Notes under the pieces: generated by a model
Seen by the model: only the letters and a program-made list of their open reading frames with translations
The model's database searches: none
Told to the model about the DNA's origin: nothing
Position numbers and translations under genes: made by a program
In this document: positions 13,530-38,750 of the stretch, in pieces
Layout of the letters: each line of letters starts with the position of its first letter
How positions within the stretch are numbered: the stretch's first letter is position 1
Assembly: GCA_037833965.1 (NCBI GenBank)
Contig: AP031354.1
Span: forward strand, 30,916,001 to 30,980,000
Direction: 5' to 3'
DNA length: 64,000 nt
From: Marchantia polymorpha subsp. ruderalis
Taxonomy: Eukaryota; Streptophyta; Marchantiopsida; Marchantiales; Marchantiaceae

Positions 13530-13977
13530 CGCCTGTGCACAGGCGAAGTAGGGTTAGGGAAGGCGCGAAGTCCGCCTACGCACAGGCGTTCGCCTGTGCA
13601 CAGGCACTTCGGCGTCGGCGGAAAATCCGCCTTGGGCCCTAGAAATGCGCCTTGTGAGGTAGAAAGTGTACGGCGCCTTCCGCGCCAGCGCGGCGCCACG
13701 TACGGCCGCCAGAGTAATCCCATCGGTACGGACCGTGCGGACGGCACGGGTGGATGCGCTCTTGGACGGACGGAGTTGCGGCGGCGGAAGCGCCGACGGA
13801 GAGACAAGGAACGGACAGACTGGACGGAGACGGCTGACCACGGTCAACGCCTTCCGCGCCAGCGCAGCGCCGCGGACGGAATTCGCCTGCGCACAGGTGA
13901 ACGCCTGTGCACAGGAGGGTGTTCAAGTTCAGCGCCGGCGGAGAATCCGCCGAGGCCCCTGCCTGCGCACAGGCAGG
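13530..13977. repeat. Cluster of CCTGTGCACAGG-type palindromes
   Basis: Perfect or near-perfect palindromes based on CGCCTGTGCACAGGCG occur at 13,530-13,545, 13,590-13,604, 13,884-13,898, 13,902-13,915 and 13,959-13,977 (here with CGCA in the centre). Other small self-complementary words such as CGCCTTCGGCG are scattered between them. The same palindrome recurs inside the LTR ORF at 15,686-15,731 and in the 3' LTR at +11,185. Confidence 0.9.
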
Positions 13978-14261
13978 AGTTGAATTTTTGTCCGACATGC
14001 GGACACACGCGTCAAGGCAGAAGGAGATTGGCCGAGGGGCGGTACGAACAAGTGTACCGCGCAAGGCGGAAAACTCGCCTTCGGCGCTACGCACCCATGT
14101 CTGGAGGGTGACACGCTCGCGGAGTTCAAATCCGCCAATTCGAGCGTGAGAGTTTAATCGACGACGGCGGAGCGTGAAGCCGCGCGTGAGAGCGAAGACC
14201 GTTCCAGCGTACAGCCGGCGCGGCCATCAAGTGAGACGTTCTTCACGACCAAGAGCCGACC

Positions 14262-17200
14262 ATGACCTTCGACCGGGCGGCGGAGAGCGTCCCATTCTTG
14301 AATTCGCGATTCCAATCTCTTGTGCGCGCTGCGCGCATCCATCTGCTGGCTGCGGACCATTCTCGACGTCGTCACACAGGAGATTTCTTGTTGATTGAGG
14401 GAGAAGTGAGTGCGCGTGATTTGGAATTGAGAGCGATTAGAGTTTGCCGAGAGAGAAAGAAACGCGGACAGTGCGGAAGTAGAATGAGCGGGCGAGCGAA
14501 CCCCAGGAACGCAATGACGAGACCGAGCAGATTGCGGATGGTGCCACTTCGCCTGCCGCAGAACGGGCTGCGCGCTTTCGAAGAGCGCTTAATAGCAAGA
14601 AAGCTCGATTTCTTGCTATGGGGATGGAATTACATCTGCGCGAATATGGTGCGCGAGTGGCTAGAGCCACAGGGACCACCCTCGCGCGGATTGCGTCCGC
14701 ATGTTGACCGGTGGACAGTCCAAGATTGGGCGCAGGCGTTGGGAAGATGTGCTGGCATGCCAGGGCATCTCCTTTTCGACAGCGAGAGCATCAAGGTGAC
14801 CAAGCAAGAAGAAGCGCAATTTGTGGAGCTGTTCAAGACCGGGAGGTCTACCAAGAATGGGTACAGGACCCGTGATTACAAAGATCGATTTCGCCGGACT
14901 TTGTCCGCGGCGCTGATGCAATTACTGCAGCCGCACCGCGCCTGCTACATCACATTGTGGCAGGTCTCTTTTGTGGAGTGCGTCATCGAGGGAACTCCAA
15001 TTCACTGGGCGAGCATCCTGCACAGGGTGATGCGACAGCACGCGTTTGAGGAGAAGGGGGGAACTCTAAACCATCTTTCTCCTTTCCTCATCAATTTTTA
15101 TCGACAGCGGAATTGTTTGACAGCGGCAGAGCTTGAACATTTTCCGCCATTGTCCATCGACCATCCCGGGAAGTATGTGCGGGAGAACGAGGTTGATACT
15201 GATGCAGAGGAGTCACCGACTTCTACCCCATCAAGACGGAGGGATGAAGGGAGACACACTCCTGCAGCGCGAGTGCCGCGGAAGCGGCGATGGAGGGAAG
15301 AGTCCGAAGAGGAGCAGCATCAAGAACCATCTGCTCCCATTCGACCGCGGCCGCTGTGCGAGCCATACAGCCGGCCGAAGCAGAAGGCACGCAGACTGGT
15401 GTTACCAGCTGACAGTGCAGACACGGCGACGATTGCGACGGAGATAGGAAGTGCGTCGCCAGAAAGGCGAGAGGAAGCGCGGACGACCCAAGGAACAACG
15501 GGCCACGCTGCAACCTCGTCGGGAGAGAGGCCACCTACGGGCCAAGGGCCTCCGGAGTTACCACGTGCGATGCGGACAGAGGTTCCGTTTGCGCACAGGC
15601 GAACCTCCGCGGACGGACGAGCCTCCGCGGACCGGCGAACACAAGTGGACGTGGATCTACGCTTACGCGTGGGAAGGAGCAGTCCGCCTGTGCACAGGCG
15701 CTCACCTGTGCACAGGTCGCCTGTGCACAGGACACCTCCACACGTGCCGCCGGTGCACAGGCAAGACTCACCCCCGTTCCAACGCAGGAAGGGGAAGGAG
15801 CCGGCGGAAGAACCGCCTACGAGACACCGGCCCTCGGGGCCAGATCCTCCGGCGCACCACGCGCCGCAATTTGCGCCTTCGGCGCCAGGGCCTTCAAGCC
15901 GAGGAGATACGAGCAGAGATGGTGCGGAGGCCGCACCATCGGCGGGAAGTCCGCCGATAGATGCGCCTTCGGCGGTAGGGTCTATAGGCCAAGGAACATC
16001 GGGCGTACGGCCCCCGGCCATGTCGCCTTCGGCGATAGATGTCCGCGGCGCTACGCCTGCGGCGGACAAGGCGCCGGCAAATGCGCCTGCGCACGGGCCG
16101 GGCACAGCCCCCACGGACCGATCAAGGGAGCAGCAGACGGAGGAGCGGAGTGACTGTCCGCGGGATGAAATCTCGATGCGCGATGCGCAATCCAACCCCG
16201 CGCAGCCACCTTCCGCTCAATCGCCTTCGACGACGGACGACAGAGACAGAGAGAATGCGGTGGGAAATCAACCAGCGGGCGACGGGGATGCCGCTCGGAT
16301 ACATTCGCCTTCCGCCTTAGACATTTTGGCGACGAGCAGCGAGGCCGCAGCCGTGCCTTCGCAGGCAGCACACGTCGAGGACGTGCAGCCCCACTCGGGG
16401 CAGTCGCCGACGCAATCAATGGCGACTGAAATTCTCCACTCGGATGATGACGACGGGGGCTCCACGGAAGAAATGTCAGGAGCAGAAGACACCGAGGAGG
16501 AGGAGGAAATTGTTGGAGCGCCGGCGGCGGCGCTCTCTGAGCAGGTGATTCCGTTGCTACGGTACTTGGATCGCAAGGTCGATAAATACGCCGACCCACT
16601 CCAGCCGGGATCTTACATCGAGTTAGTGCGCAGGCGGACTCGCACTAAAGTCCACACCAGCAAGCTATTAGCTAGAGTGGACCAGGAGTTGAGGGACTTG
16701 AAGGAGAAGCATGAGTGCTTGTGGGGACAGTACAAGCTTAATCAGAAATTCTACAAGCACTCCGAGAAGATGAAGGATGAGAAACTGGGCGAGCTCACCA
16801 AGGAGCAGGTGAAGGTCAAGGAAGCACTCAACTCTGAGCAGGCCCAGAATCGGATTTTGTCAGAGGAGCTCGTGCGACAGACGCGGTTGTTGGAACAATG
16901 TCAGCTCGCACGGCAGGCGGATGAAGAGTTAATCCGCAGGTTACAGTCAGAGTGTGGCGAATTGAGAGCGCAACGTGCCGAAGCCGAATCGCAATTAGTG
17001 ACGATTGAAGAGGATCGCAGGAAGGAGGCGGATCGCACGAAGGTGGAGACGGCGAGGCGAGTCGCCCACTGTCTCAAGGGCTACGCCCACTGGGAAGTGA
17101 AGGCGCAGGAGAAACTCACACTGCGTGAGTTTGAATTGCGCGCAGCCGGGTTGTTGTCAGGCGACAGTAGGAGTCGGCGGAAGGTAGCGAAGAAGCTCGA

Positions 17201-17396
17201 GGCCTTTCTGTCGAAGGCACAGGATACCATGTCCGTCCTCGAGGGGGAGGTGTCCGCGGCGTTGCAGCGGTTGGGACTGCGTAGTCGAGCGGAAGAGTGG
17301 CAGGGTAGGGAGTTAGTGCGCGGCAGTCGGCCGCGCAGGAGACGTAGTACAGGTTCCGCGGAGTGTAGTGTAGCGTGGTTCCGTGCAGGCGTGTAG
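14262..17396 (+). CDS. LTR-encoded (U3) ORF, 1,044 aa, 5' LTR copy
   Basis: An unbroken frame of 1,044 codons. Residues ~95-300 form a conserved globular region (KLDFLLWGWNYICANMVREW, RWTVQDWAQALGRCAG, YKDRFRRTLSAALMQLLQP, GGTLNHLSPFLINFYRQ). Its pattern of a W-rich start, a helical core and a closing LxHLSPFLI block recalls the plant transposon-associated domain seen near gypsy elements. That resemblance is inference. Residues ~310-740 are disordered and rich in Pro, Arg, Ser and Glu. They include a PVHRRSPVHRSPVHR run at ~475-490 encoded by palindromic DNA, and an acidic block (~725-750). Residues ~760-1,000 form a long coiled coil (ILSEELVRQTRLLEQCQLAR), followed by an Arg-rich tail. There are no RT, protease or integrase motifs and no signal peptide. 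The TATA box lies downstream, so main element transcripts would carry this ORF only from the 3' LTR. It may need a separate promoter or splicing. Confidence 0.85.
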   Translation: MTFDRAAESVPFLNSRFQSLVRAARIHLLAADHSRRRHTGDFLLIEGEVSARDLELRAIRVCRERKKRGQCGSRMSGRANPRNAMTRPSRLRMVPLRLPQNGLRAFEERLIARKLDFLLWGWNYICANMVREWLEPQGPPSRGLRPHVDRWTVQDWAQALGRCAGMPGHLLFDSESIKVTKQEEAQFVELFKTGRSTKNGYRTRDYKDRFRRTLSAALMQLLQPHRACYITLWQVSFVECVIEGTPIHWASILHRVMRQHAFEEKGGTLNHLSPFLINFYRQRNCLTAAELEHFPPLSIDHPGKYVRENEVDTDAEESPTSTPSRRRDEGRHTPAARVPRKRRWREESEEEQHQEPSAPIRPRPLCEPYSRPKQKARRLVLPADSADTATIATEIGSASPERREEARTTQGTTGHAATSSGERPPTGQGPPELPRAMRTEVPFAHRRTSADGRASADRRTQVDVDLRLRVGRSSPPVHRRSPVHRSPVHRTPPHVPPVHRQDSPPFQRRKGKEPAEEPPTRHRPSGPDPPAHHAPQFAPSAPGPSSRGDTSRDGAEAAPSAGSPPIDAPSAVGSIGQGTSGVRPPAMSPSAIDVRGATPAADKAPANAPAHGPGTAPTDRSREQQTEERSDCPRDEISMRDAQSNPAQPPSAQSPSTTDDRDRENAVGNQPAGDGDAARIHSPSALDILATSSEAAAVPSQAAHVEDVQPHSGQSPTQSMATEILHSDDDDGGSTEEMSGAEDTEEEEEIVGAPAAALSEQVIPLLRYLDRKVDKYADPLQPGSYIELVRRRTRTKVHTSKLLARVDQELRDLKEKHECLWGQYKLNQKFYKHSEKMKDEKLGELTKEQVKVKEALNSEQAQNRILSEELVRQTRLLEQCQLARQADEELIRRLQSECGELRAQRAEAESQLVTIEEDRRKEADRTKVETARRVAHCLKGYAHWEVKAQEKLTLREFELRAAGLLSGDSRSRRKVAKKLEAFLSKAQDTMSVLEGEVSAALQRLGLRSRAEEWQGRELVRGSRPRRRRSTGSAECSVAWFRAGV
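15686..15731. repeat. Three consecutive palindromes inside the LTR ORF
   Basis: CGCCTGTGCACAGGCG, ACCTGTGCACAGGT and CGCCTGTGCACAGG follow one another. In the ORF frame they give repeated PVHR. Their lengths keep the frame open. The 3' LTR repeats them at 26,871-26,916. Confidence 0.9.
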
Positions 17397-17432
17397 CGTA
17401 GTGCAGTGTAGTGCTAGGTAGGACTTAGAAGG

Positions 17433-17439
17433 TATAAAA
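17433..17439 (+). promoter_or_regulatory. LTR TATA box (5' LTR)
   Basis: TATAAAA in the context GGTATAAAATAGTTCCAGGC, 37 bp past the LTR ORF stop. The same position in the diverged solo LTR has GGTATAAAGTAGTTCAAGGC (minus strand at 38,701), so the box is conserved while flanks changed. Transcription should start near 17,465. Confidence 0.75.
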
Positions 17440-17740
17440 TAGTTCCAGGCGTTTTGCCTGGGGTTCTTTCCCAAACTCAGGAGTATAGATCAGGAACCCA
17501 TTTCCTTTGCGTGTTTGTGTCCTTGAGTTCTGTCACCACGCAGGAGGAGTTACAACTTAGCGTTCCGCATTTTGTAGCTGAAGGCCTTCGGCCGAATGTT
17601 CAGAGCTAGTACATTGGTTAGAGACTTGAGTAGTTCGGATCTGCACCTGCGGGTGACTGCCGATGCTCAGAGCCAGTGACTAGTTAGATACTTGAACAGT
17701 TTCGCCCCTACACCTTCGAGTGTGCCTTTCTGATTGTACT

Positions 17741-18310
17741 CCCTTGGGATTTTTCCCCTGAATGCCAAAGTGAAGTTTTGCCACTTCGTGTAAGCCTTGG
17801 TTGTAGATTCAGGTTACGCTGCAGCAGGTGCCTTGAGGGTAACCCCTGTAGTATTTCTGGGAATGACAAGTGCCTGAGAATTCAAACTCTTCAATAGACT
17901 GTTGTTGTGTTACTGGAATGTTTCACAGTGAGTCCTTCAGTGCGGACCTGTGTTCTCTGCGCGTTTTGTGAGCTGAGAGTGTTGTTCACCGCGTAGGAGT
18001 GACTTCGATCCGAAGTAGGCAGTCCAAACCGGGTTTCCTACACTAGCAGCAAGCTAGTGGAAGTGTTGTAAAAGCCGGAGTTGGAAGTCACTGCCCGCAG
18101 CTTTTGCCGAGTGTACTCTTGAGAGACTTTCCCCCTGAAATCTTGAAGTAGAGGTCCTAACGGATCTCTGGGTTGTGTTTCTGTAGTTTCAGGTGTGTGT
18201 GTGTGTGTGTGTGTTACGCTGCACTGTGCGACCTCCGAGTGCGCTCCGAGTGGACACTTGCAGTATTTCTGGGAGTGACAGTTGCCTGAGAATTCAAACT
18301 CTTCAATAGT
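17741..18310. repeat. Partial duplication within R-U5
   Basis: The block ending GCCTGAGAATTCAAACTCTT at about 17,873-17,892 recurs at 18,283-18,302. Both are preceded by related TGTACTC...CCCCTGAA and GTATTTCTGGGA.TGACA blocks, at a spacing near 400 bp. The same doubled structure is visible in the solo LTR (37,760-38,420), so it is an old feature of the family. Confidence 0.7.
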
Positions 18311-18434
18311 CTGTTAAAACGTGACACTTTGTACCCTGTGTGTTCCTCTGTCCCTGTGGGTTCGACCTTTCTACCACTATATTGCAGTTTTAGCCTTTAG
18401 TGGGTTATTACATAAGAAGCCGACAACTTCTTTT

Positions 18435-18452
18435 TGGCGCCGCTGCCGGGGA
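18435..18452 (+). promoter_or_regulatory. Primer-binding site (tRNA-Asp type)
   Basis: TGGCGCCGCTGCCGGGGA differs at one base from the complement of the 3' end of plant tRNA-Asp, the primer used by Athila-like elements. It lies 22 nt after the LTR end (18,412), a larger gap than usual. Confidence 0.65.
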
Positions 18453-18487
18453 CAGTTGCGTCAACACCGGGGTTTTTACGAGCAGCC

Positions 18488-18529
18488 ATGCTCGGTGAAT
18501 GTCGACTGGGGCTGGCGGGAGCAACCTAA
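18488..18529 (+). other. Upstream ORF overlapping the gag start
   Basis: ATG at 18,488 opens a 13-codon frame that ends at TAA (18,527-18,529), past the gag ATG at 18,499. It could lower gag initiation or set reinitiation. A TGA immediately before the gag ATG fixes 18,499 as the first usable gag codon. Confidence 0.5.
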
Positions 18530-21330
18530 GTGCTAGAGCTGTCCGCAAGTTCCGACGAGATTCAGAGAAGGCCGTGGAAGAGACACGGCGTCAAACCAAG
18601 AAAATACCAAAAAGAGTACCTAAGCCTAGTTCGGCCGACATCCTTGGGGAACCTACCCCCGACGACTCGGAACCAAACTTGGTGCTTACAGTTCTACTAG
18701 ATATTCCTTGCACGGACTCGCCTAGTGAAGTAGAACCGACCGCCCGAGAACCGTCGACAGACACATCGATGGCGGACGGACAAGCCAATGTGCGGCTACC
18801 TCAGCCGATTACTAAACATTCCTACCCGAAGTACAAAGGGAGTGGGGATGACGACGATGCAGATTCATACATCAAGTTATTCGAGTCGGTGTCTATTGCC
18901 AATCGCGAGATCGCAGACGACGACCGACTAAGGATCTTTCCAAGCCTTCTGCGGAAGAAAGCGAGGAGTTGGTATAATCACGAGAGCATCGATCCGACTG
19001 GGTTGACAACATGGGCCCAGCTGAAGGAGAAGTTCCTTCGCCGCTTTCGCGAGCTCGGCTACGACAGCCGGGTTTTGACGAAGTTGCGTAATTTGCAGCG
19101 AGAGAAGAAGGAGAGTCTGCGTGACTACACTGAGAGATTTCTGGACCTCCTCGACAGAATACCGAAAACAGGACCAGGGTCCCCTTTCTCGGTACAACAA
19201 GCTGTGGATTGGTACGTGACCGGTTTAACTCGGGAGATGGAGACTTTTTGCCGACGCAGCAAGTGCGACACTATTGAGGATGTGATTGCATCGGCAGAAG
19301 CCTTCGAAACTTCCACTCTCAACCGAAGAGGGAGAGAGAGACGGGAGTCGAAGGAGCGCAAACCGAAAGGAGGGCGAAGTCGGCGTAGAGGTACAACTCC
19401 GTCATCGGAGGAATCGTCTTCGGACGAGAACCGTTCTTCATCCGAAGAAGAGGAAACCTCATCGTCGGAGGAGGAGAAGAAGAGGAAGAAGCATGGGTCA
19501 GCGAAGAAAAAGGGCATCCGACGAATGACTACGGACAGAGCGCCGGGAGATATAGCTTCGAAGATGGAGACCCTTGTGAAGGACTTCGCCGATCTCAAGG
19601 TTCAAGTGGTAGGCGGGCATGATCGCAGAAAATCACCCGGGAGAGTGCGAGCGAACTTATGGTGTACTACGTGCGGGGCGGTGGGACATGCAAACACCGA
19701 GTGCCTTACCACCCGGCCGTCATATCCAGTCAACGCAGTAGAGTGGGCGCAACCGTACTATGGAGAGCACCCTCAGTACTACGGAGAGGCTAGCGAAGAG
19801 ACAGCCTACGCCGTCCAGTCGGTGCCTACCCCTCCTGCAGTTTCAGCAATGCAAGTCCCACGATATATTCCGGTGGATCGGGCCACTACGGTACCTGTGA
19901 GGCGGAGAGCACCTCCAGGGACGTTTGACCCACCGCCACCGCGAGCTTGTTATAATTGCGGGGAAGTTGGGCACTTCTCACCGCAGTGTCCCCATCCAAA
20001 AAGGCGAAACGATTATGCTCCGACATGTAGTAATTGCAAGAAAGTCGGGCACACTGCGCCAGAGTGTGATCAGCCACCAGTCCCTCGGCCAGTGGTACGA
20101 TTTGTGAACACTCCTGCCAAGGAGGACGTGCAAGTTAACCAGGTCGAAGTAGGTTCAGACGGGGATGGCGAAGACGAAGAATGGCCGGCTGAAGAGGTTA
20201 TGTGCGCACGGGTCGAAACTCGTAGCTCCAAGAAATCCAAGGAGCAAGAGCGCGACACTCGCAAGCACGAACGGAGAACCGCCGACCGGACGGGAAAAGG
20301 AAAGGAGAAGACATCCAGCAAGTCCGACTCGCGACCTGCTCGGAAGTCTTCGGCTACGCGGGAGGCACCAGCAGTGCGCCCCCAGACAGCAGTCGAGGAC
20401 GAGCCAGTGCGCCTACTGAAACGGGACTATGCTCCGGATATCCGTAACGAGGTAGCCAACCTGTTGAAGGAAGCGATCCGCACGCAAAAGGACCCACCGC
20501 GGCCAGACTTGACATCCTCCCTTGGGGCGAAGTTGGCAGCCACCGTGGAACCTCGCAGAGCGTCGCCGACCCCGGCGACCCAACGCGCCCACTATGATTT
20601 GGTTGAAGATCTCGGGAGTCGAAAAGTGAACATCACGTTCAAGCAGCTCTTGGAGGACAATAAGACGTATCGGAGAATGTTGATGCTTTCGCTACGGCAT
20701 CCGCGGAAGCCGCGCGCATCCACATCCTCTCAAGTATATCAAGTGGAGAGCGAAGACCAAGGGCCACCCGAGATCGATGTGGAGATAGCAGGATGTTGTG
20801 TACGCAGAGTGCCAATCGACTCTGGATCAGGAGTCAACATAATGACGGAGGATACAGCGAGAGCCTTGGGGTTCAGTCAATACGAACCCTCGAAGCGTGT
20901 GTTGAGATTAGCGGATCAGACGCGGAGAATGCCTGCAGGTATGCTGCGCAATGTCAAGACAACCATCGGGGGTGCGGACTTTCGGTTGACATATATCATC
21001 CTTCAGCCGATGATGAAGCAGGGCTATGACGTTCTGCTCGGGCGACCATGGCTATATGGTGCACAAGTCAGATGTGATTGGCGAAGACATCGCCTTAAGT
21101 TTCCTCATCCTTCGGAACCGACCAAAACCATTACGGTGCCCTGGAATAGGGTCAGGCACGAAGGAGAGACCCCATCGACAAGTGCAGGTTACACATCGGG
21201 CGAGGACAGTGAGTCGACCGCGCAATCGGATTCCAGTGGTACCGAATCCGATTACTTCGTGGGATTCGTTGCCTGCTGTTCGGTGGAAGAAGAAGAAGAG
21301 CAGGAAGCTATTCAGCCGGAAGACGAATAG
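18499..21330 (+). CDS. gag-pro: Gag-protease polyprotein
   Basis: 943 codons before a UAG. The retrotransposon Gag (capsid) domain spans residues ~105-260 (FLRRFRELGYDSRVLTKLRN and LRDYTERFLDLLDRIP). A Ser/Glu/Lys-rich segment (~290-350) follows, then three CX2CX4HX4C zinc knuckles: CTTCGAVGHANTEC (~389), CYNCGEVGHFSPQC (~482) and CSNCKKVGHTAPEC (~507). These bind nucleic acid in the capsid particle. The aspartic protease is at ~755-900, with active site IDSGSGVNIM and the flap/second motif DVLLGRPWL. It would cut the polyprotein after particle assembly. The frame continues past the UAG straight into Pol, with no other stop. Confidence 0.95.
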   Translation: MSTGAGGSNLSARAVRKFRRDSEKAVEETRRQTKKIPKRVPKPSSADILGEPTPDDSEPNLVLTVLLDIPCTDSPSEVEPTAREPSTDTSMADGQANVRLPQPITKHSYPKYKGSGDDDDADSYIKLFESVSIANREIADDDRLRIFPSLLRKKARSWYNHESIDPTGLTTWAQLKEKFLRRFRELGYDSRVLTKLRNLQREKKESLRDYTERFLDLLDRIPKTGPGSPFSVQQAVDWYVTGLTREMETFCRRSKCDTIEDVIASAEAFETSTLNRRGRERRESKERKPKGGRSRRRGTTPSSEESSSDENRSSSEEEETSSSEEEKKRKKHGSAKKKGIRRMTTDRAPGDIASKMETLVKDFADLKVQVVGGHDRRKSPGRVRANLWCTTCGAVGHANTECLTTRPSYPVNAVEWAQPYYGEHPQYYGEASEETAYAVQSVPTPPAVSAMQVPRYIPVDRATTVPVRRRAPPGTFDPPPPRACYNCGEVGHFSPQCPHPKRRNDYAPTCSNCKKVGHTAPECDQPPVPRPVVRFVNTPAKEDVQVNQVEVGSDGDGEDEEWPAEEVMCARVETRSSKKSKEQERDTRKHERRTADRTGKGKEKTSSKSDSRPARKSSATREAPAVRPQTAVEDEPVRLLKRDYAPDIRNEVANLLKEAIRTQKDPPRPDLTSSLGAKLAATVEPRRASPTPATQRAHYDLVEDLGSRKVNITFKQLLEDNKTYRRMLMLSLRHPRKPRASTSSQVYQVESEDQGPPEIDVEIAGCCVRRVPIDSGSGVNIMTEDTARALGFSQYEPSKRVLRLADQTRRMPAGMLRNVKTTIGGADFRLTYIILQPMMKQGYDVLLGRPWLYGAQVRCDWRRHRLKFPHPSEPTKTITVPWNRVRHEGETPSTSAGYTSGEDSESTAQSDSSGTESDYFVGFVACCSVEEEEEQEAIQPEDE

Positions 21331-21336
21331 CAATTA
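21328..21336 (+). promoter_or_regulatory. Leaky stop (readthrough) signal UAG CAA UUA
   Basis: The Gag-Pro stop TAG is followed by CAATTA, a match to the CARYYA context that gives efficient stop-codon suppression in plants (known from tobamoviruses and from the SIRE1 retroelement). Gag-Pro and Pol are in the same frame. No frameshift is needed and there is no ATG at the start of Pol. Confidence 0.8.
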
Positions 21337-24171
21337 ACTGTGGGACTGGGAAGGAGTGAGACGAGTCACACCGAGGGCATTGTCGACCCTAGTGACTGTC
21401 ACGAAGTACAACTCAGTCCCGGCAAGTGCTTGAAGGTATCAAGCGCAGTGAGAGGAGACGAGCTAAAGAAAGTACAGGCCTTCCTTAGCCATTATGTCGA
21501 CGTTTTCGCCTGGAAGATCGAAGACATGAAGGGGATACCCGCGCGGTATGGGGAACACCGTATCGATTTACTGGACGACTCTGTACCCATACGACAGCGC
21601 CAGTATCGCCTCAACCCAAAGTACTCCTTGCTAGTGAAAGAGGAGATAGATAAGTACTTGAGCGCTGGTATTATTTACCCTGTGCTCAGCAGCGAGTGGG
21701 TGTCGCCGATTGTTATCGTACCCAAGAAGTTGACGGGTAAGATACGAGTGTGTCAGGATTTCCGGAAGCTGAATGCAGCAACACGCAAGGATCATCACCC
21801 GTTACCATTCACGGATGCCATTCTAGACCATGTCGCAGGACATGAATGTTATAGCTTCCTGGATGGGTTCTCAGGTTACAATCAGGTGTCTATCCGTGAA
21901 CAGGATAAGGATAAAACTACGTTCACAACCGACTGGGGAACTTACGCATACCACAAGATGCCCTTCGGTCTGTGCAACGCGCCTGCCACCTTTCAACGGA
22001 TGATGACCAATATCTTTCAGGAACAACTGAGGAAGTTCCTGGAAATATTCATAGATGACTTCTGTGTCTTTGGGAAGCGATCTGAACACCTAAGTCACTT
22101 GAAGCAGACCTTCGATAAATGTAGAGAGAGCAGTTTATCACTGCATCCCGAGAAGTGCTTTTTCTTCATGACCAGTGGGATCTTGTTGGGTCATCGGGTC
22201 TCGGCAGAAGGCATTGCGGTGGACATCGAGAAGGTCAAGGTTATACTCGAGCTTGAGCCACCCACGAATCTAAGAGAGCTGCGAGCATTCCTGGGTCATG
22301 TGGGCTACTACCGAAGATTCATACACATGTATGCAATACTGGCGGCGGACCTGACCAAGTTGTTGAAGAAGGACGAGCCCTATGCTTGGGGTGCGAACCA
22401 GCAGACAGCATTTGAAGCCCTGAAAGCGAAACTCACGACTGCTCCCGTACTAAGGAGTCCAGACTGGAATCGACCATTCCATGTTTACGTTGACACATCG
22501 GCATTCGCCATCGGTGTGGTACTGAGTCAAAAGGATGACAACAAAAAGGACTACCCGATCTACTTCGCGAGCCGACAGCTGTCTCTAGCAGAGCGGAAGT
22601 ACACCACGACGGAGAGAGAAGCGTTGGGGATGGTGTACTCCTGTAAAAAGTTCCGTCACTACCTAATCTGCTACGAGTTTGTGTTCCATGTGGACCACTA
22701 CGCATTGCAACACCTAGTCAAGAAAGCCGACCTATCCGGTCGGATCGCCAGGTGGGTGTTATTACTACAAGAGTTCACCTACACAGTCCAGACCAGGAAA
22801 GGAGTGCACCACGAAAATGCGGATTACTTGTCCCGATTATGGACACAGCCGACAGAGGAGGAATTGGTGGACGATTTTCCAGATGAAGAGTTATTTCAGT
22901 TGTCTGCAGGACATGAGTCCCGCTATGCCGACCTGTATCGATATCTGCTAACCCTCCAGTGCCCCGAAGGCATGGATTTGGAACAGCGAACTGTCTTTAT
23001 TCATAAGGCAGGCCCATACCAACTCCAGCAGGGGGTTTTGTTTAAGAAGATGGCAGATGAGCGCTTGTGCAGGTGCCTGGAGGAATCAGAAGTACCAAGA
23101 ATAGTGAGTGCGATGCACACAGAGGAGGCGGGTGGACACTATGCCACCAGGAACACGGTCACAAAGATCCTAAATGCGGGATATTGGTGGCCGACCATGT
23201 TTAAGGATGTTCTCGATTACATCCGCAAGTGCGACAGTTGCCAGAGGACGGGGAGACCGACGCCTACAACACGATGGCCCCTGACTCCCATCATGCCTCT
23301 AGCACCTTTCGAAAAGTGGGGTATTGACTTTGTAGGGCCGATACAACCAGTGACTAGAAGTACACGAAGGCGCTACATTCTGGTAGCAACGGACTACGCC
23401 ACCAAAATGGTAGAGGCCAGAGCCACCAGAAGGGATGATGCTGCCACAGTGGCAGCATTCTTGTTTGAGTCGATCATCACACGCTACGGATGTCCCTTAG
23501 AGCTGGTCAGCGACCGGGGCACGCATTTTCTAAATCAGATCATCGAAGATCTGACACGGTATTTCCACATCAAGCACCGGAAGACTACTCCCTACAATCC
23601 CAAGGCAAATGGACTGACGGAGAAGTCCAATGGTCTGCTGTGTAAAATACTACTCAAGGTCACGGTGAATCACGCTCACGACTGGGATACGAAGCTAGCA
23701 GCCGCTCTATGGGCGTACCGCACAGCTGAGAAGATCACGACCAAACAGACACCATACTTTCTGGTGTATGGGCAACACCCGATCCTCCCGATCGAATTTG
23801 AAGTACCCACCCAACGAACGTTGGATTTGCAGAGGATGGGCGCAGAGGAGAGTCAGCTCTACAGGTTACAGGAAGTCACGCTGCTGGATGAGCGGAGAAG
23901 AGACGCCGAAGATCGCACCAGGAAAATCCAGCTCCGCCGAAAGGAGAGATACGATAAAAAGATCAAACCGGTACTCCTGCAGGCGGGTGATTTGGCATTG
24001 CTCTACGACAGCAGGCATGCCAGATTCCCAGGCAAACTGCACCTAAGATGGATGGGACCTTACAGGGTTGTCGAAGTCTTCCCGAATGGATCCATCCAAC
24101 TTGCGGACCTGGCCGGCGATTTGTTAGGCACCCGAGTGAACGGGTGGCGGTTGAAGAAATACCACATGTGA
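21331..24171 (+). CDS. pol: Pol: reverse transcriptase, RNase H, integrase
   Basis: Continues in the Gag-Pro frame after the UAG, with no ATG near its start. The first near-start codon is GTG at 21,340, so residues are numbered from there. Reverse transcriptase is at ~80-270 (VPKKLTGKIRVCQDFRKLN, MPFGLCNAPATFQRMM and catalytic FIDDF at ~237). RNase H is at ~375-500 (HVYVDTSAFAIGVVLSQ, TEREALGMVYSC). Integrase has the zinc-binding H-H-C-C (~592-630, ending CDSCQ) and the catalytic D (WGIDFVGP, ~660), D (SDRGTHF, ~724) and E (NPKANGLTEKSNG, ~760). The C-terminal GPY-type module is RWMGPYRVVEVF (~905). There is no chromodomain and no extra RNase H. The stop is TGA at 24,169-24,171. All catalytic residues are in place. 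Confidence 0.96.
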   Translation, partial: QLTVGLGRSETSHTEGIVDPSDCHEVQLSPGKCLKVSSAVRGDELKKVQAFLSHYVDVFAWKIEDMKGIPARYGEHRIDLLDDSVPIRQRQYRLNPKYSLLVKEEIDKYLSAGIIYPVLSSEWVSPIVIVPKKLTGKIRVCQDFRKLNAATRKDHHPLPFTDAILDHVAGHECYSFLDGFSGYNQVSIREQDKDKTTFTTDWGTYAYHKMPFGLCNAPATFQRMMTNIFQEQLRKFLEIFIDDFCVFGKRSEHLSHLKQTFDKCRESSLSLHPEKCFFFMTSGILLGHRVSAEGIAVDIEKVKVILELEPPTNLRELRAFLGHVGYYRRFIHMYAILAADLTKLLKKDEPYAWGANQQTAFEALKAKLTTAPVLRSPDWNRPFHVYVDTSAFAIGVVLSQKDDNKKDYPIYFASRQLSLAERKYTTTEREALGMVYSCKKFRHYLICYEFVFHVDHYALQHLVKKADLSGRIARWVLLLQEFTYTVQTRKGVHHENADYLSRLWTQPTEEELVDDFPDEELFQLSAGHESRYADLYRYLLTLQCPEGMDLEQRTVFIHKAGPYQLQQGVLFKKMADERLCRCLEESEVPRIVSAMHTEEAGGHYATRNTVTKILNAGYWWPTMFKDVLDYIRKCDSCQRTGRPTPTTRWPLTPIMPLAPFEKWGIDFVGPIQPVTRSTRRRYILVATDYATKMVEARATRRDDAATVAAFLFESIITRYGCPLELVSDRGTHFLNQIIEDLTRYFHIKHRKTTPYNPKANGLTEKSNGLLCKILLKVTVNHAHDWDTKLAAALWAYRTAEKITTKQTPYFLVYGQHPILPIEFEVPTQRTLDLQRMGAEESQLYRLQEVTLLDERRRDAEDRTRKIQLRRKERYDKKIKPVLLQAGDLALLYDSRHARFPGKLHLRWMGPYRVVEVFPNGSIQLADLAGDLLGTRVNGWRLKKYHM

Positions 24172-24194
24172 GTGTTCGCGTGGGCGCTCACAAT

Positions 24195-24208
24195 TGAGGA
24201 GGGGGGCA
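24195..24208 (+). promoter_or_regulatory. Polypurine tract
   Basis: TGAGGAGGGGGGCA sits directly before the 3' LTR start at 24,209. It is the expected primer site for plus-strand DNA synthesis. Confidence 0.85.
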
Positions 24209-25446
24209 TGTGGTACCCCACTTTTGGCAATTTTGAGGAAATTAAAACATTTTTGGAAAACTGTACCCTGGAAGCATTGTAAATAGCCTTCGGTACATCA
24301 AAACAGAGTGAATCCGGAAGATCGCGGGGATTCTCGAGGGATCTTGTAGAATCTGGGATTTGGGGTGCCGCAGCAAGCACAGGCACCACCCTCCCTGCGA
24401 GCTCCGCAGTTAGGATCTCTACGGCGCAAGGCGCAAAACCCGCCTTCGGAGGTTGCGTCCGCGGCTGTAGGGAAACCCCCGTAATTAGGTCAACCCTCGG
24501 GCGCCTTGACCAAGTTAGGGTCCCGTTGGAAAGAGCTCGACGCGCTGATTCTAACGAGCCCAAGAACGCTTGGATCGGACGAGGACTTAGGGAGTTATCG
24601 CTACTGGAAGAAACGGAGGCGGTCGCCTACGGCGGAAGGAGTTCGCCACCGGCGCGAATTCCGCCTACGCGGAAGGGGGATTCAAGTTTTGTCCTATGCG
24701 CGGACGAAGGCGTTCGCCTGTGCACAGGCGAAGTAGGGTTAGGGAAGGCGCGAAGTCCGCCTACGCACAGGCGTTCGCCTGTGCACAGGCACTTCGGCGT
24801 CGGCGGAAAATCCGCCTTGGGCCCTAGAAATGCGCCTTGTGAGGTAGAAAGTGTACGGCGCCTTCCGCGCCAGCGCGGCGCCACGTACGGCCGCCAGAGT
24901 AATCCCATCGGTACGGACCGTGCGGACGGCACGGGTGGATGCGCTCTTGGACGGACGGAGTTGCGGCGGCGGAAGCGCCGACGGAGAGACAAGGAACGGA
25001 CAGACTGGACGGAGACGGCTGACCACGGTCAACGCCTTCCGCGCCAGCGCAGCGCCGCGGACGGAATTCGCCTGCGCACAGGTGAACGCCTGTGCACAGG
25101 AGGGTGTTCAAGTTCAGCGCCGGCGGAGAATCCGCCGAGGCCCCTGCCTGCGCACAGGCAGGAGTTGAATTTTTGTCCGACATGCGGACACACGCGTCAA
25201 GGCAGAAGGAGATTGGCCGAGGGGCGGTACGAACAAGTGTACCGCGCAAGGCGGAAAACTCGCCTTCGGCGCTACGCACCCATGTCTGGAGGGTGACACG
25301 CTCGCGGAGTTCAAATCCGCCAATTCGAGCGTGAGAGTTTAATCGACGACGGCGGAGCGTGAAGCCGCGCGTGAGAGCGAAGACCGTTCCAGCGTACAGC
25401 CGGCGCGGCCATCAAGTGAGACGTTCTTCACGACCAAGAGCCGACC

Positions 25447-28400
25447 ATGACCTTCGACCGGGCGGCGGAGAGCGTCCCATTCTTGAATTCGCGATTCCAA
25501 TCTCTTGTGCGCGCTGCGCGCATCCATCTGCTGGCTGCGGACCATTCTCGACGTCGTCACACAGGAGATTTCTTGTTGATTGAGGGAGAAGTGAGTGCGC
25601 GTGATTTGGAATTGAGAGCGATTAGAGTTTGCCGAGAGAGAAAGAAACGCGGACAGTGCGGAAGTAGAATGAGCGGGCGAGCGAACCCCAGGAACGCAAT
25701 GACGAGACCGAGCAGATTGCGGATGGTGCCACTTCGCCTGCCGCAGAACGGGCTGCGCGCTTTCGAAGAGCGCTTAATAGCAAGAAAGCTCGATTTCTTG
25801 CTATGGGGATGGAATTACATCTGCGCGAATATGGTGCGCGAGTGGCTAGAGCCACAGGGACCACCCTCGCGCGGATTGCGTCCGCATGTTGACCGGTGGA
25901 CAGTCCAAGATTGGGCGCAGGCGTTGGGAAGATGTGCTGGCATGCCAGGGCATCTCCTTTTCGACAGCGAGAGCATCAAGGTGACCAAGCAAGAAGAAGC
26001 GCAATTTGTGGAGCTGTTCAAGACCGGGAGGTCTACCAAGAATGGGTACAGGACCCGTGATTACAAAGATCGATTTCGCCGGACTTTGTCCGCGGCGCTG
26101 ATGCAATTACTGCAGCCGCACCGCGCCTGCTACATCACATTGTGGCAGGTCTCTTTTGTGGAGTGCGTCATCGAGGGAACTCCAATTCACTGGGCGAGCA
26201 TCCTGCACAGGGTGATGCGACAGCACGCGTTTGAGGAGAAGGGGGGAACTCTAAACCATCTTTCTCCTTTCCTCATCAATTTTTATCGACAGCGGAATTG
26301 TTTGACAGCGGCAGAGCTTGAACATTTTCCGCCATTGTCCATCGACCATCCCGGGAAGTATGTGCGGGAGAACGAGGTTGATACTGATGCAGAGGAGTCA
26401 CCGACTTCTACCCCATCAAGACGGAGGGATGAAGGGAGACACACTCCTGCAGCGCGAGTGCCGCGGAAGCGGCGATGGAGGGAAGAGTCCGAAGAGGAGC
26501 AGCATCAAGAACCATCTGCTCCCATTCGACCGCGGCCGCTGTGCGAGCCATACAGCCGGCCGAAGCAGAAGGCACGCAGACTGGTGTTACCAGCTGACAG
26601 TGCAGACACGGCGACGATTGCGACGGAGATAGGAAGTGCGTCGCCAGAAAGGCGAGAGGAAGCGCGGACGACCCAAGGAACAACGGGCCACGCTGCAACC
26701 TCGTCGGGAGAGAGGCCACCTACGGGCCAAGGGCCTCCGGAGTTACCACGTGCGATGCGGACAGAGGTTCCGTTTGCGCACAGGCGAACCTCCGCGGACG
26801 GACGAGCCTCCGCGGACCGGCGAACACAAGTGGACGTGGATCTACGCTTACGCGTGGGAAGGAGCAGTCCGCCTGTGCACAGGCGCTCACCTGTGCACAG
26901 GTCGCCTGTGCACAGGACACCTCCACACGTGCCGCCGGTGCACAGGCAAGACTCACCCCCGTTCCAACGCAGGAAGGGGAAGGAGCCGGCGGAAGAACCG
27001 CCTACGAGACACCGGCCCTCGGGGCCAGATCCTCCGGCGCACCACGCGCCGCAATTTGCGCCTTCGGCGCCAGGGCCTTCAAGCCGAGGAGATACGAGCA
27101 GAGATGGTGCGGAGGCCGCACCATCGGCGGGAAGTCCGCCGATAGATGCGCCTTCGGCGGTAGGGTCTATAGGCCAAGGAACATCGGGCGTACGGCCCCC
27201 GGCCATGTCGCCTTCGGCGATAGATGTCCGCGGCGCTACGCCTGCGGCGGACAAGGCGCCGGCAAATGCGCCTGCGCACGGGCCGGGCACAGCCCCCACG
27301 GACCGATCAAGGGAGCAGCAGACGGAGGAGCGGAGTGACTGTCCGCGGGATGAAATCTCGATGCGCGATGCGCAATCCAACCCCGCGCAGCCACCTTCCG
27401 CTCAATCGCCTTCGACGACGGACGACAGAGACAGAGAGAATGCGGTGGGAAATCAACCAGCGGGCGACGGGGATGCCGCTCGGATACATTCGCCTTCCGC
27501 CTTAGACATTTTGGCGACGAGCAGCGAGGCCGCAGCCGTGCCTTCGCAGGCAGCACACGTCGAGGACGTGCAGCCCCACTCGGGGCAGTCGCCGACGCAA
27601 TCAATGGCGACTGAAATTCTCCACTCGGATGATGACGACGGGGGCTCCACGGAAGAAATGTCAGGAGCAGAAGACACCGAGGAGGAGGAGGAAATTGTTG
27701 GAGCGCCGGCGGCGGCGCTCTCTGAGCAGGTGATTCCGTTGCTACGGTACTTGGATCGCAAGGTCGATAAATACGCCGACCCACTCCAGCCGGGATCTTA
27801 CATCGAGTTAGTGCGCAGGCGGACTCGCACTAAAGTCCACACCAGCAAGCTATTAGCTAGAGTGGACCAGGAGTTGAGGGACTTGAAGGAGAAGCATGAG
27901 TGCTTGTGGGGACAGTACAAGCTTAATCAGAAATTCTACAAGCACTCCGAGAAGATGAAGGATGAGAAACTGGGCGAGCTCACCAAGGAGCAGGTGAAGG
28001 TCAAGGAAGCACTCAACTCTGAGCAGGCTCAGAATCGGATTTTGTCAGAGGAGCTCGTGCGACAGACGCGGTTGTTGGAACAATGTCAGCTCGCACGGCA
28101 GGCGGATGAAGAGTTAATCCGCAGGTTACAGTCAGAGTGTGGCGAATTGAGAGCGCAACGTGCCGAAGCCGAATCGCAATTAGTGACGATTGAAGAGGAT
28201 CGCAGGAAGGAGGCGGATCGCACGAAGGTGGAGACGGCGAGGCGAGTCGCCCACTGTCTCAAGGGCTACGCCCACTGGGAAGTGAAGGCGCAGGAGAAAC
28301 TCACACTGCGTGAGTTTGAATTGCGCGCAGCCGGGTTGTTGTCAGGCGACAGTAGGAGTCGGCGGAAGGTAGCGAAGAAGCTCGAGGCCTTTCTGTCGAA

Positions 28401-28581
28401 GGCACAGGATACCATGTCCGTCCTCGAGGGGGAGGTGTCCGCGGCGTTGCAGCGGTTGGGACTGCGTAGTCGAGCGGAAGAGTGGCAGGGTAGGGAGTTA
28501 GTGCGCGGCAGTCGGCCGCGCAGGAGACGTAGTACAGGTTCCGCGGAGTGTAGTGTAGCGTGGTTCCGTGCAGGCGTGTAG
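25447..28581 (+). CDS. LTR-encoded (U3) ORF, 1,044 aa, 3' LTR copy
   Basis: The protein is identical to the 5' LTR copy. This copy lies downstream of pol and inside the U3 that the full-length RNA carries at its 3' end. In the transcript the order is therefore gag-pro, pol, this ORF, which is the slot that env-like or other accessory genes occupy in plant retroelements. Here it falls inside the LTR. After reverse transcription the ORF is copied to the 5' end as well. Domains and caveats are as for 14,262-17,396. Confidence 0.85.
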   Translation: MTFDRAAESVPFLNSRFQSLVRAARIHLLAADHSRRRHTGDFLLIEGEVSARDLELRAIRVCRERKKRGQCGSRMSGRANPRNAMTRPSRLRMVPLRLPQNGLRAFEERLIARKLDFLLWGWNYICANMVREWLEPQGPPSRGLRPHVDRWTVQDWAQALGRCAGMPGHLLFDSESIKVTKQEEAQFVELFKTGRSTKNGYRTRDYKDRFRRTLSAALMQLLQPHRACYITLWQVSFVECVIEGTPIHWASILHRVMRQHAFEEKGGTLNHLSPFLINFYRQRNCLTAAELEHFPPLSIDHPGKYVRENEVDTDAEESPTSTPSRRRDEGRHTPAARVPRKRRWREESEEEQHQEPSAPIRPRPLCEPYSRPKQKARRLVLPADSADTATIATEIGSASPERREEARTTQGTTGHAATSSGERPPTGQGPPELPRAMRTEVPFAHRRTSADGRASADRRTQVDVDLRLRVGRSSPPVHRRSPVHRSPVHRTPPHVPPVHRQDSPPFQRRKGKEPAEEPPTRHRPSGPDPPAHHAPQFAPSAPGPSSRGDTSRDGAEAAPSAGSPPIDAPSAVGSIGQGTSGVRPPAMSPSAIDVRGATPAADKAPANAPAHGPGTAPTDRSREQQTEERSDCPRDEISMRDAQSNPAQPPSAQSPSTTDDRDRENAVGNQPAGDGDAARIHSPSALDILATSSEAAAVPSQAAHVEDVQPHSGQSPTQSMATEILHSDDDDGGSTEEMSGAEDTEEEEEIVGAPAAALSEQVIPLLRYLDRKVDKYADPLQPGSYIELVRRRTRTKVHTSKLLARVDQELRDLKEKHECLWGQYKLNQKFYKHSEKMKDEKLGELTKEQVKVKEALNSEQAQNRILSEELVRQTRLLEQCQLARQADEELIRRLQSECGELRAQRAEAESQLVTIEEDRRKEADRTKVETARRVAHCLKGYAHWEVKAQEKLTLREFELRAAGLLSGDSRSRRKVAKKLEAFLSKAQDTMSVLEGEVSAALQRLGLRSRAEEWQGRELVRGSRPRRRRSTGSAECSVAWFRAGV

Positions 28582-28617
28582 CGTAGTGCAGTGTAGTGGT
28601 AGGTAGGACTTAGAAGG

Positions 28618-28624
28618 TATAAAA
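28618..28624 (+). promoter_or_regulatory. LTR TATA box (3' LTR)
   Basis: The same GGTATAAAATAG as at 17,433. It could drive transcription outward into the flank at 29,598. Confidence 0.7.
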
Positions 28625-29597
28625 TAGTTCCAGGCGTTTTGCCTGGGGTTCTTTCCCAAACTCAGGAGTATAGATCAGGAACCCATTTCCTTTGCGTGTT
28701 TGTGTCCTTGAGTTCTGTCACCACGCAGGAGGAGTTACAACTTAGCGTTCCGCATTTTGTAGCTGAAGGCCTTCGGCCGAATGTTCAGAGCTAGTACATT
28801 GGTTAGAGACTTGAGTAGTTCGGATCTGCACCTGCGGGTGACTGCCGATGCTCAGAGCCAGTGACTAGTTAGATACTTGAACAGTTTCGCCCCTACACCT
28901 TCGAGTGTGCCTTTCTGATTGTACTCCCTTGGGATTTTTCCCCTGAATGCCAAAGTGAAGTTTTGCCACTTCGTGTAAGCCTTGGTTGTAGATTCAGGTT
29001 ACGCTGCAGCAGGTGCCTTGAGGGTAACCCCTGTAGTATTTCTGGGAATGACAAGTGCCTGAGAATTCAAACTCTTCAATAGACTGTTGTTGTGTTACTG
29101 GAATGTTTCACAGTGAGTCCTTCAGTGCGGACCTGTGTTCTCTGCGCGTTTTGTGAGCTGAGAGTGTTGTTCACCGCGTAGGAGTGACTTCGATCCGAAG
29201 TAGGCAGTCCAAACCGGGTTTCCTACACTAGCAGCAAGCTAGTGGAAGTGTTGTAAAAGCCGGAGTTGGAAGTCACTGCCCGCAGCTTTTGCCGAGTGTA
29301 CTCTTGAGAGACTTTCCCCCTGAAATCTTGAAGTAGAGGTCCTAACGGATCTCTGGGTTGTGTTTCTGTAGTTTCAGGTGTGTGTGTGTGTGTGTGTGTT
29401 ACGCTGCACTGTGCGACCTCCGAGTGCGCTCCGAGTGGACACTTGCAGTATTTCTGGGAGTGACAGTTGCCTGAGAATTCAAACTCTTCAATAGTCTGTT
29501 AAAACGTGACACTTTGTACCCTGTGTGTTCCTCTGTCCCTGTGGGTTCGACCTTTCTACCACTATATTGCAGTTTTAGCCTTTAGTGGGTTATTACA

Positions 29598-38700: not shown

Positions 38701-38707
38701 TTTATAC
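38701..38707 (-). promoter_or_regulatory. Conserved TATA box of solo LTR
   Basis: Reverse complement reads GGTATAAAGTAGTTCAAGGC, matching GGTATAAAATAGTTCCAGGC of the intact element, just after the ORF stop. Confidence 0.6.
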
Positions 38708-38750
38708 CCTCTAAGGTCCTAACTAACACTACGCTGCAATACCTGCTACT

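What the first reader, a model, noticed from the sequence alone, without database searches (positions are those of the whole stretch)
14262..28581. A 1,044-codon gene carried inside the LTR (U3) of a plant Ty3/gypsy element
Both 5,389-bp LTRs contain the same long ORF, upstream of the LTR TATA box. In the full-length RNA it sits once, after pol, but reverse transcription copies it to both ends. Coding U3 regions are rare; the best-known parallel is the MMTV sag gene. The protein has a conserved N-terminal domain, a disordered middle and a coiled coil, unlike any standard retroelement protein. Known plant retroelement accessory ORFs lie between pol and the 3' LTR rather than within it.
Basis: partly seen in the sequence, partly recalled or inferred. 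Interest (0 to 1): 0.95.

Follow-up and report, generated by a model that had tools for sequence, protein, structure and literature searches.

The report
Gene inside a liverwort retrotransposon's LTR
A family of liverwort jumping elements carries an extra protein gene inside the repeats at its two ends, so the gene is doubled in every new copy and can survive after the rest of the element is gone.

Summary
The window (Marchantia polymorpha-like, inferred from named homologs) carries a complete Ty3/gypsy element: 5,389-bp LTRs with 2 differences, TSD CTACT, tRNA-Asp PBS, PPT, gag-pro and pol. A 1,044-codon ORF lies inside each LTR, upstream of the LTR's TATA box. It is a real gene. The 30 best-matching loci examined are all complete LTRs, 10 of them TSD-flanked solo LTRs. 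Four diverged copies (about three families) hold it in the same place, with dN/dS 0.21-0.32 at dS>1. In LTRs not chosen by the ORF, pN/pS is 0.27 overall and 0.07 for the N-terminal domain. Correction: the only start codon shared by all five sequences compared is Met85 (14514), so the conserved gene has 960 codons. New here: a short gag-pol-less relative lacks the gene but matches the TATA-R-U5 part from 2 nt after the ORF stop, and its LTR has five copies of a 43-bp U3 palindrome that ORF-bearing LTRs mostly have once. Best reading: a trans-acting, probably nuclear accessory protein that may act through that site. Coding and selection are shown; transcript, localisation and binding are not. 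Searches of an open-access library listed no plant precedent.

The parts
13024..18412 (+). 5' LTR (5,389 bp; TSD CTACT at 13019-13023)
24209..29597 (+). 3' LTR (TSD CTACT at 29598-29602)
14262..17396 (+). LTR ORF, 5' copy (1,044 codons from the first ATG)
25447..28581 (+). LTR ORF, 3' copy; on the genomic RNA this is the copy after pol
14514..17396 (+). conserved part of the gene, from Met85 (960 codons); an ATG is aligned here in 5 of 5 sequences
14544..15191 (+). N-terminal domain, residues 95-310; most constrained part (pN/pS 0.03-0.08), predicted helical at low confidence
15276..15293 (+). basic NLS-like cluster PRKRRW (residues 339-344); P.KR[KR] found in 19 of 31 family proteins
15192..16451 (+). 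low-complexity Pro/Ser/Ala/Arg-rich middle, residues 311-730, fast-evolving
16662..17108 (+). single 149-residue helix (residues 801-949), read as a coiled coil; pLDDT blocks 80-98 except the last ten residues (55)
13334..13376 (+). conserved U3 palindrome (13-bp imperfect arms, 17-nt spacer; 10 of 13 arm positions complementary here); second copy 24519-24561
17433..17438 (+). LTR TATA box (second copy 28618); places the ORF in U3
18435..18452 (+). PBS, 18 of 18 complementary to the tRNA-Asp(GTC) 3' end with CCA added; 22 nt after the LTR end
18499..21330 (+). gag with zinc knuckles and aspartic protease
21328..21336 (+). TAG CAA TTA between gag-pro and pol, same frame (readthrough-type context; same in 20 of 20 other copies read)
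21331..24171 (+). pol: RT, RNase H, integrase; no chromodomain reported
24196..24206 (+). polypurine tract
37671..42771 (-). solo LTR of a diverged family (5,101 bp, TSD AAAGG) with a decayed copy of the same gene at 41341-38757

Best explanation
A Ty3/gypsy lineage of Marchantia carries an accessory protein gene in the U3 part of its LTRs. Reverse transcription copies the gene into both LTRs, and LTR-LTR recombination leaves it in solo LTRs (follows from the anatomy). The gene is under purifying selection as a protein (shown). The protein has a conserved N-terminal domain, a basic NLS-like cluster, a fast-evolving low-complexity middle and a long C-terminal helix; I infer that it is a nuclear dimer. 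I infer that it acts in trans, because a short relative that lost gag-pol also lacks this gene, keeps the TATA-R-U5 part and inserted recently. The U3 of such relatives carries five copies of a palindrome that ORF-bearing LTRs mostly carry once, so I propose that this palindrome is a binding site for the protein or for a partner. The result would be transcriptional activation or anti-silencing of the LTRs, as VANC proteins do for VANDAL elements. How the gene itself is expressed is open: a TATA-less transcript starting within each LTR, or a spliced genomic RNA.
For: LTR residence: 30 of 30 loci fetched (of 44 scored) are complete LTRs: 9 5', 8 3', 2 between two internal regions, 10 solo with TSD, 1 solo-like without TSD. 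Four diverged solo LTRs with TSDs also hold the gene. Selection: dN/dS of P0001 against these four copies is 0.21-0.32 overall, N-domain 0.15-0.29, C part 0.17-0.24. Pooled pN/pS in 7 LTRs chosen by R-U5, reference included, is 0.273, N-domain 0.074, C part 0.180. Trans action: L047 has 3.2-kb LTRs that are 99.7% identical over the 3,175 columns held, no tblastn match to the protein, two gag scraps only, and 97% identity from LTR position 4375 onwards, the ORF stop being at 4373. 40 of 40 scored matches to the ORF-less U3 of L041 are 95-100% identical. Site: 5 palindromes in the LTRs of L041 and L047 each (4 by regex plus 1 weaker in L047), against 1 in 34 of 36 ORF-bearing LTRs. The spacer is 17 nt in 14 of 14 copies. 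The genome has 1,576 exact matches and none to the reversed control. Protein: NLS-like cluster and no hydrophobic segment, 149-residue helix.
Against: No transcript, protein, localisation or binding data were available. No TATA-like site lies upstream of the ORF in any of the 5 sequences, so a separate promoter is unproved. The link between palindrome and protein is circumstantial: the site could bind a host factor or act as an RNA hairpin. Only 4 of 14 copies (two related pairs) have 13 of 13 complementary arm positions. At arm position 3, 9 of 14 copies have a T/C mismatch; at position 10, 8 of 14 have G-T, which pairs in RNA but not in DNA and so leans towards a hairpin. The palindrome was not found in L035, which carries the gene, nor by the regex in 2 of 36 family LTRs. 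One 61-bp stretch of the L047 LTR matches LTR 2679-2739, inside the ORF's low-complexity middle. No Pfam or PDB similarity supports DNA binding, and the N-domain model has pLDDT 46.6. The 30-locus sample was ranked by protein match, so its pN/pS of 0.152 is biased low. Of 6 complete LTRs chosen by R-U5 (reference aside), 3 have a broken frame.
Confidence: 0.4

Rival explanations
1. The LTR gene encodes a particle or pre-integration-complex accessory protein (assembly, RNA packaging, nuclear import or integration targeting) that works with Gag-Pol; the U3 palindrome is an RNA hairpin or an unrelated promoter element.
For: Long helix and NLS-like cluster. The palindrome's minimum-energy RNA fold is a hairpin in 14 of 14 copies (no shuffle control), G-T at arm position 10 in 8 of 14 pairs only as RNA, and U3 is present on the genomic RNA. 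Absence together with gag-pol in L047 fits equally well.
Against: The site is multiplied in U3, upstream of the TATA box, rather than in the leader. No similarity to known Gag or capsid domains.
Confidence: 0.3
2. The LTR gene is host-directed (counter-defence or other host manipulation), comparable in role, not in structure, to MMTV sag or lentiviral accessory genes.
For: Fast-evolving low-complexity middle (pN/pS 0.41 in the R-U5-chosen sample), retention in solo LTRs, position in U3.
Against: Constrained N-domain and C part; pooled values are below 1 throughout, though no site test for positive selection was run; no membrane segment.
Confidence: 0.15
3. A captured host gene or nested element is passively carried in the LTR without a role for the element.
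For: No homolog named from outside Marchantia was found, so an origin by capture cannot be excluded.
Against: The same place in the LTR in copies with dS above 1 from P0001, with purifying selection.
Confidence: 0.05
4. Artefact: a chance ORF in GC-rich sequence, or wrongly drawn LTR bounds.
For: The U3 blocks with the ORF are 55-67% GC.
Against: Markov control, codon-phase pattern, TSD-flanked solo LTRs, and few indels in the ORF: 3 distinct ones (2 of them multiples of three, the third at the stop codon) against 29 outside (3 multiples of three).
Confidence: 0.01

Closest known systems
MMTV sag (U3-encoded superantigen of a betaretrovirus)
   Different: No hydrophobic segment here, NLS-like cluster and long helix instead, about three times longer (Sag length recalled), plant Ty3/gypsy host element; sequence similarity to Sag not tested directly (no Pfam match).
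Additional ORFs (aORFs) of plant Ty3/gypsy elements such as Grande, RIRE2 and Retand (transposase-28 domain PF04195)
   Same: Accessory gene placed after pol on the RNA; the Grande protein is nuclear and transcribed from its own promoter (PMC7264820, parts 1 and 2 of 3 read; PMC11963269, passages).
   Different: Those lie between pol and the 3' LTR in antisense. Here the gene is sense and inside the LTR, after the PPT. No PF04195 match at E<=10 in the 5 members of A1 or the 23 of A2.
Env-like sense ORFs of Athila and Bagy2
   Same: Sense orientation, after pol (PMC7264820).
   Different: No transmembrane-type segment (maximum 19-residue Kyte-Doolittle mean 1.14); within the LTR, not internal.
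VANC anti-silencing proteins of Arabidopsis VANDAL transposons
   Same: Works-like parallel: conserved domains plus highly variable regions, a trans-acting protein, and target motifs that multiply by repeat formation in noncoding parts of the element (PMC5735166, passages).
   Different: DNA transposon, not an LTR element (recalled); the targets there are 8-9-base motifs in tandem arrays, here a 43-bp palindrome; binding not shown here; no sequence comparison with VANC was made.
Short non-autonomous LTR elements (TRIM/LARD-like; names recalled)
   Same: L047 is a short gag-pol-less element with PBS, PPT and near-identical LTRs.
   Different: Its LTR also lacks the gene that its autonomous relatives carry in the LTR.

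Membership tests
Ty3/gypsy LTR retrotransposon | LTR pair with TG..CA ends, 5-bp TSD, PBS, PPT | tested here: met
Ty3/gypsy LTR retrotransposon | gag, protease, RT-RNase H-integrase order | tested here: met
Tat/Athila (OTA) lineage | PBS complementary to tRNA-Asp (lineage trait recalled) | tested here: met
   18 of 18; one of 29 matching places fetched and called tRNA-Asp(GTC) by ARAGORN
Tat/Athila (OTA) lineage | no chromodomain in pol | tested here: met
   no chromodomain hit in Pfam at E<=1
Tat/Athila (OTA) lineage | RT phylogeny inside OTA | not tested
MMTV sag-type gene | coding sequence inside U3 of both LTRs | tested here: met
MMTV sag-type gene | type II transmembrane protein | tested here: not met
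   no hydrophobic segment
Retand/Grande-type aORF | located between pol and the 3' LTR, internal | tested here: not met
   PPT at 24196-24206 directly after pol; ORF beyond it, in the LTR
Retand/Grande-type aORF | transposase-28 domain PF04195 | tested here: not met
Env-like gene | transmembrane segment | tested here: not met
VANC-like anti-silencing factor | sequence-specific binding to repeated motifs of the own element | not testable with these tools
   repeated conserved palindrome present, binding unknown
VANC-like anti-silencing factor | trans-acting | tested here: inconclusive
   ORF-less relatives suggest but do not prove it

The most novel reading that the evidence does not exclude
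The LTR is a self-contained regulatory gene. It encodes a trans-acting activator or anti-silencing factor, and the factor's palindromic target lies in the same U3. Every solo LTR can therefore remain a working helper locus after the element is gone, and ORF-less parasites compete for the factor by multiplying the target site.
Probability: 0.25. Interest if true: 0.92.

Novelty: new variant of a known kind. Interest (0 to 1): 0.8.

Why it matters
Accessory genes of plant LTR elements are described between pol and the 3' LTR. A large constrained gene inside the LTR changes the element's logic. The gene is doubled at each insertion, it remains in solo LTRs that are usually treated as relics, and it turns U3 into a coding region that must also keep its regulatory roles. 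The naturally ORF-less short elements offer a built-in deletion comparison in a model liverwort that can be transformed, so the function is directly testable. It also suggests that many Marchantia gene models annotated as hypothetical host proteins (26 of the 28 homologs are so named) may be LTR genes; the LTR context of those records was not examined.

Tried and rejected
Rejected: chance ORF (Markov and codon-phase controls); wrong LTR bounds (TSDs, solo LTRs); Env-like protein (no TM segment); upstream exon in the 337-codon open frame 13098-14111 (no codon-phase signal); ATG at 14262 as the start shared by all (present in 2 of 5 sequences; Met85 in 5 of 5). Led nowhere: Pfam at E<=10 gave only weak chance-like hits; no PDB relative; AlphaFold2 of the N-terminal domain gave pLDDT 46.6, so no fold search was run; the single long helix of the C part is uninformative for a fold search; Rfam none at gathering scores; the sigma-70 promoter scan does not apply to plants. 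The first tRNA pattern was mis-specified by me by one base and was corrected. The splice-site hypothesis for a subgenomic RNA could not be tested. Paper searches for LTR-internal ORFs (10, 5 and 0 papers) and for Marchantia LTR elements showed no precedent as judged from titles and abstract starts; the papers that hold the phrase 'LTR-encoded protein' were not opened, and the library lacks most subscription journals.

Rows dropped before counts: from the 10 LTRs chosen by R-U5, L041 (ORF-less family), L042 (2.35-kb deletion) and L044 (head-to-head LTR) were left out of the clean pN/pS. With all 10 plus the reference, including misaligned stretches, pooled pN/pS was 0.496. With L043 kept it was 0.280, without it 0.273. 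Of 44 scored matches only the 30 with fetched loci were examined structurally. Of 40 gag-pol junctions, 20 were read besides the window's own. Indels counted per copy against the reference gave 29 of 31 multiples of three in the ORF and 31 of 165 outside, but shared indels count many times there; the count of distinct indels is the one I rely on.


Full report
What is there. The window belongs to a 241-Mb genome in 9 contigs. Protein homologs of the ORF are named Marchantia polymorpha subsp. ruderalis, so I take the host to be M. polymorpha or a close relative. The element is a complete Ty3/gypsy retrotransposon. Its LTRs are 13024-18412 and 24209-29597, 5,389 bp each with 2 differences, with TG...CA ends and TSD CTACT. 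The PPT is at 24196-24206. The PBS at 18435-18452 is complementary over 18 of 18 positions to a tRNA-Asp(GTC) 3' end with CCA added. A 22-base pattern of that tRNA's 3' part has 29 genome matches, all with the same letters, and the one place fetched was called tRNA-Asp. gag with zinc knuckles and protease (18499-21330) and pol with RT, RNase H and integrase (21331-24171) were identified by Pfam. No chromodomain was reported.

The ORF. Each LTR holds a 1,044-codon ORF; the two copies differ by one base and encode the same protein. The ORF ends at 17396 and the TATA box stands at 17433. The core GGTATAAAA(T/A)AGTTCC is present in 36 of 36 LTRs of the young family examined. Variants with TATAAA, 948-1036 nt from the LTR end, are found in 5 of 5 sequences of the wider comparison (P0001 and four diverged copies), and none of the 5 has a TATA-like site upstream of the ORF.

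It sits in LTRs. A six-frame search of the genome scored 44 matches out of 13,400 first-look candidates. All 44 were 98-100% identical, and 39 of 44 had no internal stop. Of the 30 loci fetched, 30 are complete LTRs with matching ends: 9 5' LTRs, 8 3' LTRs, 2 LTRs flanked by internal regions on both sides, 10 solo LTRs with a 5-bp TSD, and 1 solo-like LTR without TSD. Of the 10 TSD-flanked solo LTRs, 7 keep an unbroken frame (stops in L009, L029 and L030). This set was ranked by protein match and is biased towards intact copies.

Diverged copies. In the window itself a solo LTR on the minus strand (42771-37671, TSD AAAGG) contains a decayed copy with 52% identity in the N-terminal part, 68% in the C-terminal part and 33% in the middle. 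Three more diverged copies from elsewhere were fetched. All three are solo LTRs with TSDs (L033 GCACT, L034 CTATG, L035 CACAT) and hold the gene at the same place, with 54-57% identity in the N-terminal part and 43-54% in the rest. L033 and the window's solo LTR are close to each other (N-domain dS 0.08), so the four copies stand for about three families. The gene has been in the LTR since before these families split.

Selection. P0001 against the four diverged copies gives dS 1.35-2.45 and dN/dS 0.21-0.32 overall, 0.15-0.29 for residues 95-310 and 0.17-0.24 for 740-1030. These NG86 values at saturated dS are rough. The close pair L033 and window solo LTR gives 0.67 overall, as expected if dead copies decay. 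Within the young family, 30 copies give pooled pN/pS 0.152, with 0.030 for residues 95-310. To remove the ascertainment bias I picked 10 LTRs by their R-U5 instead. Six were complete LTRs: three had open frames, one had 1 stop, one had 2 stops and one had a late frameshift. With the reference they give pN/pS 0.273, N-domain 0.074, middle 0.41, C part 0.18. Segregating sites by codon phase were 62/36/176 in the ORF against 48/56/57 in a neighbouring open frame. Distinct indels among the 30 copies against the reference number 3 in the ORF (3 bp, 15 bp, and 5 bp at the stop codon) and 29 outside it, 3 of them multiples of three.

Start codon. In an alignment of the five sequences, an ATG is aligned with codon 85 (14514) in 5 of 5. 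An ATG aligned with codon 1 is present and in frame in P0001 and L035 only; L034 has an in-frame ATG 29 codons upstream of its Met85 equivalent, and L033 and the solo LTR have none. Six annotated homologs also begin at this Met (P0009, P0010, P0011, P0016, P0017, P0026). Residues 41-84 show 7 of 7 variable sites at third positions in the young family, so an N-terminal extension is probably used there. The part shared by all has 960 codons.

The protein. Pfam and PDB give nothing convincing. Residues 82-315 are predicted as helices at low confidence (pLDDT 46.6). Residues 801-949 form one helix, mostly at pLDDT 80-98, which I read as a coiled coil. A basic P.KR[KR] cluster follows the N-domain in 19 of 31 family proteins, many of the others being fragments; there is no membrane segment. 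The middle is Pro/Ser/Ala/Arg-rich and evolves fastest.

Short relatives without the gene. One LTR chosen by R-U5 (L041) turned out to lack the gene. Its U3 has 40 scored matches at 95-100% identity, out of 3,124 first-look candidates; one pair of them lies 3.7 kb apart. That pair is L047, a short element: a 3,194-bp LTR, 507 bp internal with PBS, two gag scraps and PPT, and a second LTR 99.7% identical over 3,175 columns. I did not see the outer end of the second LTR or a TSD. Its LTR matches the ORF-bearing LTR at 97% from position 4375 onwards; the ORF stop is at 4373. There is no tblastn match to the protein, though one 61-bp stretch matches LTR 2679-2739 in the ORF's low-complexity middle. 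So what is needed in cis appears to lie outside the ORF, and this gene is missing together with gag-pol. That is the pattern expected of a function supplied in trans, though other histories (recombination of an older LTR with a young R-U5) are possible. L041 and L046 come from a nested, rearranged locus and are weaker evidence.

A conserved palindrome. The noncoding U3 segment shared between families contains a 43-bp imperfect palindrome (13334-13376). It occurs once in 34 of 36 ORF-bearing family LTRs by regex, and a recognisable copy is present in L033, L034 and the window's solo LTR, but none was found in L035. The ORF-less LTRs of L041 and L047 carry five each. Spacing is constant at 17 nt in 14 of 14 copies. 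Four copies (two related pairs) have 13 of 13 complementary arm positions. At arm position 3 the letters are T/C in 9, T-A in 3 and G-C in 2 copies; at position 10 they are G-T in 8 and G-C in 6. The genome holds 1,576 exact matches to the pattern and none to the reversed control; most of their surroundings were not examined. It could be a site for a dimeric protein or an RNA hairpin; the data do not decide, and the G-T positions lean towards RNA. Two papers on Triticeae satellites contain the string GTTGGAAAGCT (search listing only), so a related motif may be wider in plants. I did not follow this.

Mechanism. I favour a trans-acting nuclear factor acting on U3 (0.4), with a particle or pre-integration role (0.3) and a host-directed role (0.15) as rivals. 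Shown: coding, constraint, LTR residence, survival in solo LTRs, an ORF-less short relative, palindrome conservation and multiplication. Inferred: nuclear location, dimerisation, binding, effect on transcription or silencing, and the route of expression.

Limits. Homolog searches scored only the 7,991 and 7,993 candidates sharing most words or 251 candidates. Of 28 homologs, 26 are named Marchantia and 2 carry no name, so restriction to Marchantia is provisional. The genome search lists only the best candidates, so counts are lower bounds.

Noticed in passing
21328-21336: gag-pro and pol are in one frame, separated by TAG followed by CAATTA, the context known (recalled) from tobamovirus readthrough; 20 of 20 other genome copies read have the same nine bases, which suggests pol is made by stop-codon readthrough.
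   Followed up: partly
18413-18434: 22-nt spacer between LTR end and PBS with a small inverted repeat (AAGAAG...CTTCTT), also present in L047; reverse transcripts would carry extra bases beyond the LTR end that must be removed before integration.
   Followed up: no
G000:C2:31348111-31381823 and L010/L011/L013 (C6:8.28-8.31 Mb): Apparent tandem chains of elements sharing LTRs: four gag-pol junctions exactly 11,184 bp apart on C2 and three LTR ORFs 11,188 bp apart on C6.
   Followed up: no
L043, L044: Head-to-head LTRs (an inverted LTR 5' part joined directly to an LTR), possibly auto-integration or nested insertion products.
   Followed up: no
L042: An LTR with about 2.35 kb deleted from within the ORF, next to a pol end.
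   Followed up: no
P0026: An annotated Marchantia protein of which 220 residues match this LTR protein at 71% and whose C-terminus looks unrelated; a fusion, an alternative LTR gene type, or a gene-model artefact.
   Followed up: no
46695-49633 (minus strand): Two tandem LTR 3' parts with fragments of a more distant form of the same C-terminal coiled-coil protein (31-37% identity); a further LTR family.
   Followed up: partly
50007-62664: Large tandem and dispersed repeat block (units of about 1,741 bp) with overlapping open frames on both strands; no tblastn match to the LTR gene there.
   Followed up: no
7383-11558 and 32524-36204: A long inverted duplication (85-96% complementary) that brackets the element insertion.
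   Followed up: no
15320-16195 (minus strand): 291-codon antisense open frame inside the LTR gene; no Pfam match, probably a by-product of composition.
   Followed up: partly
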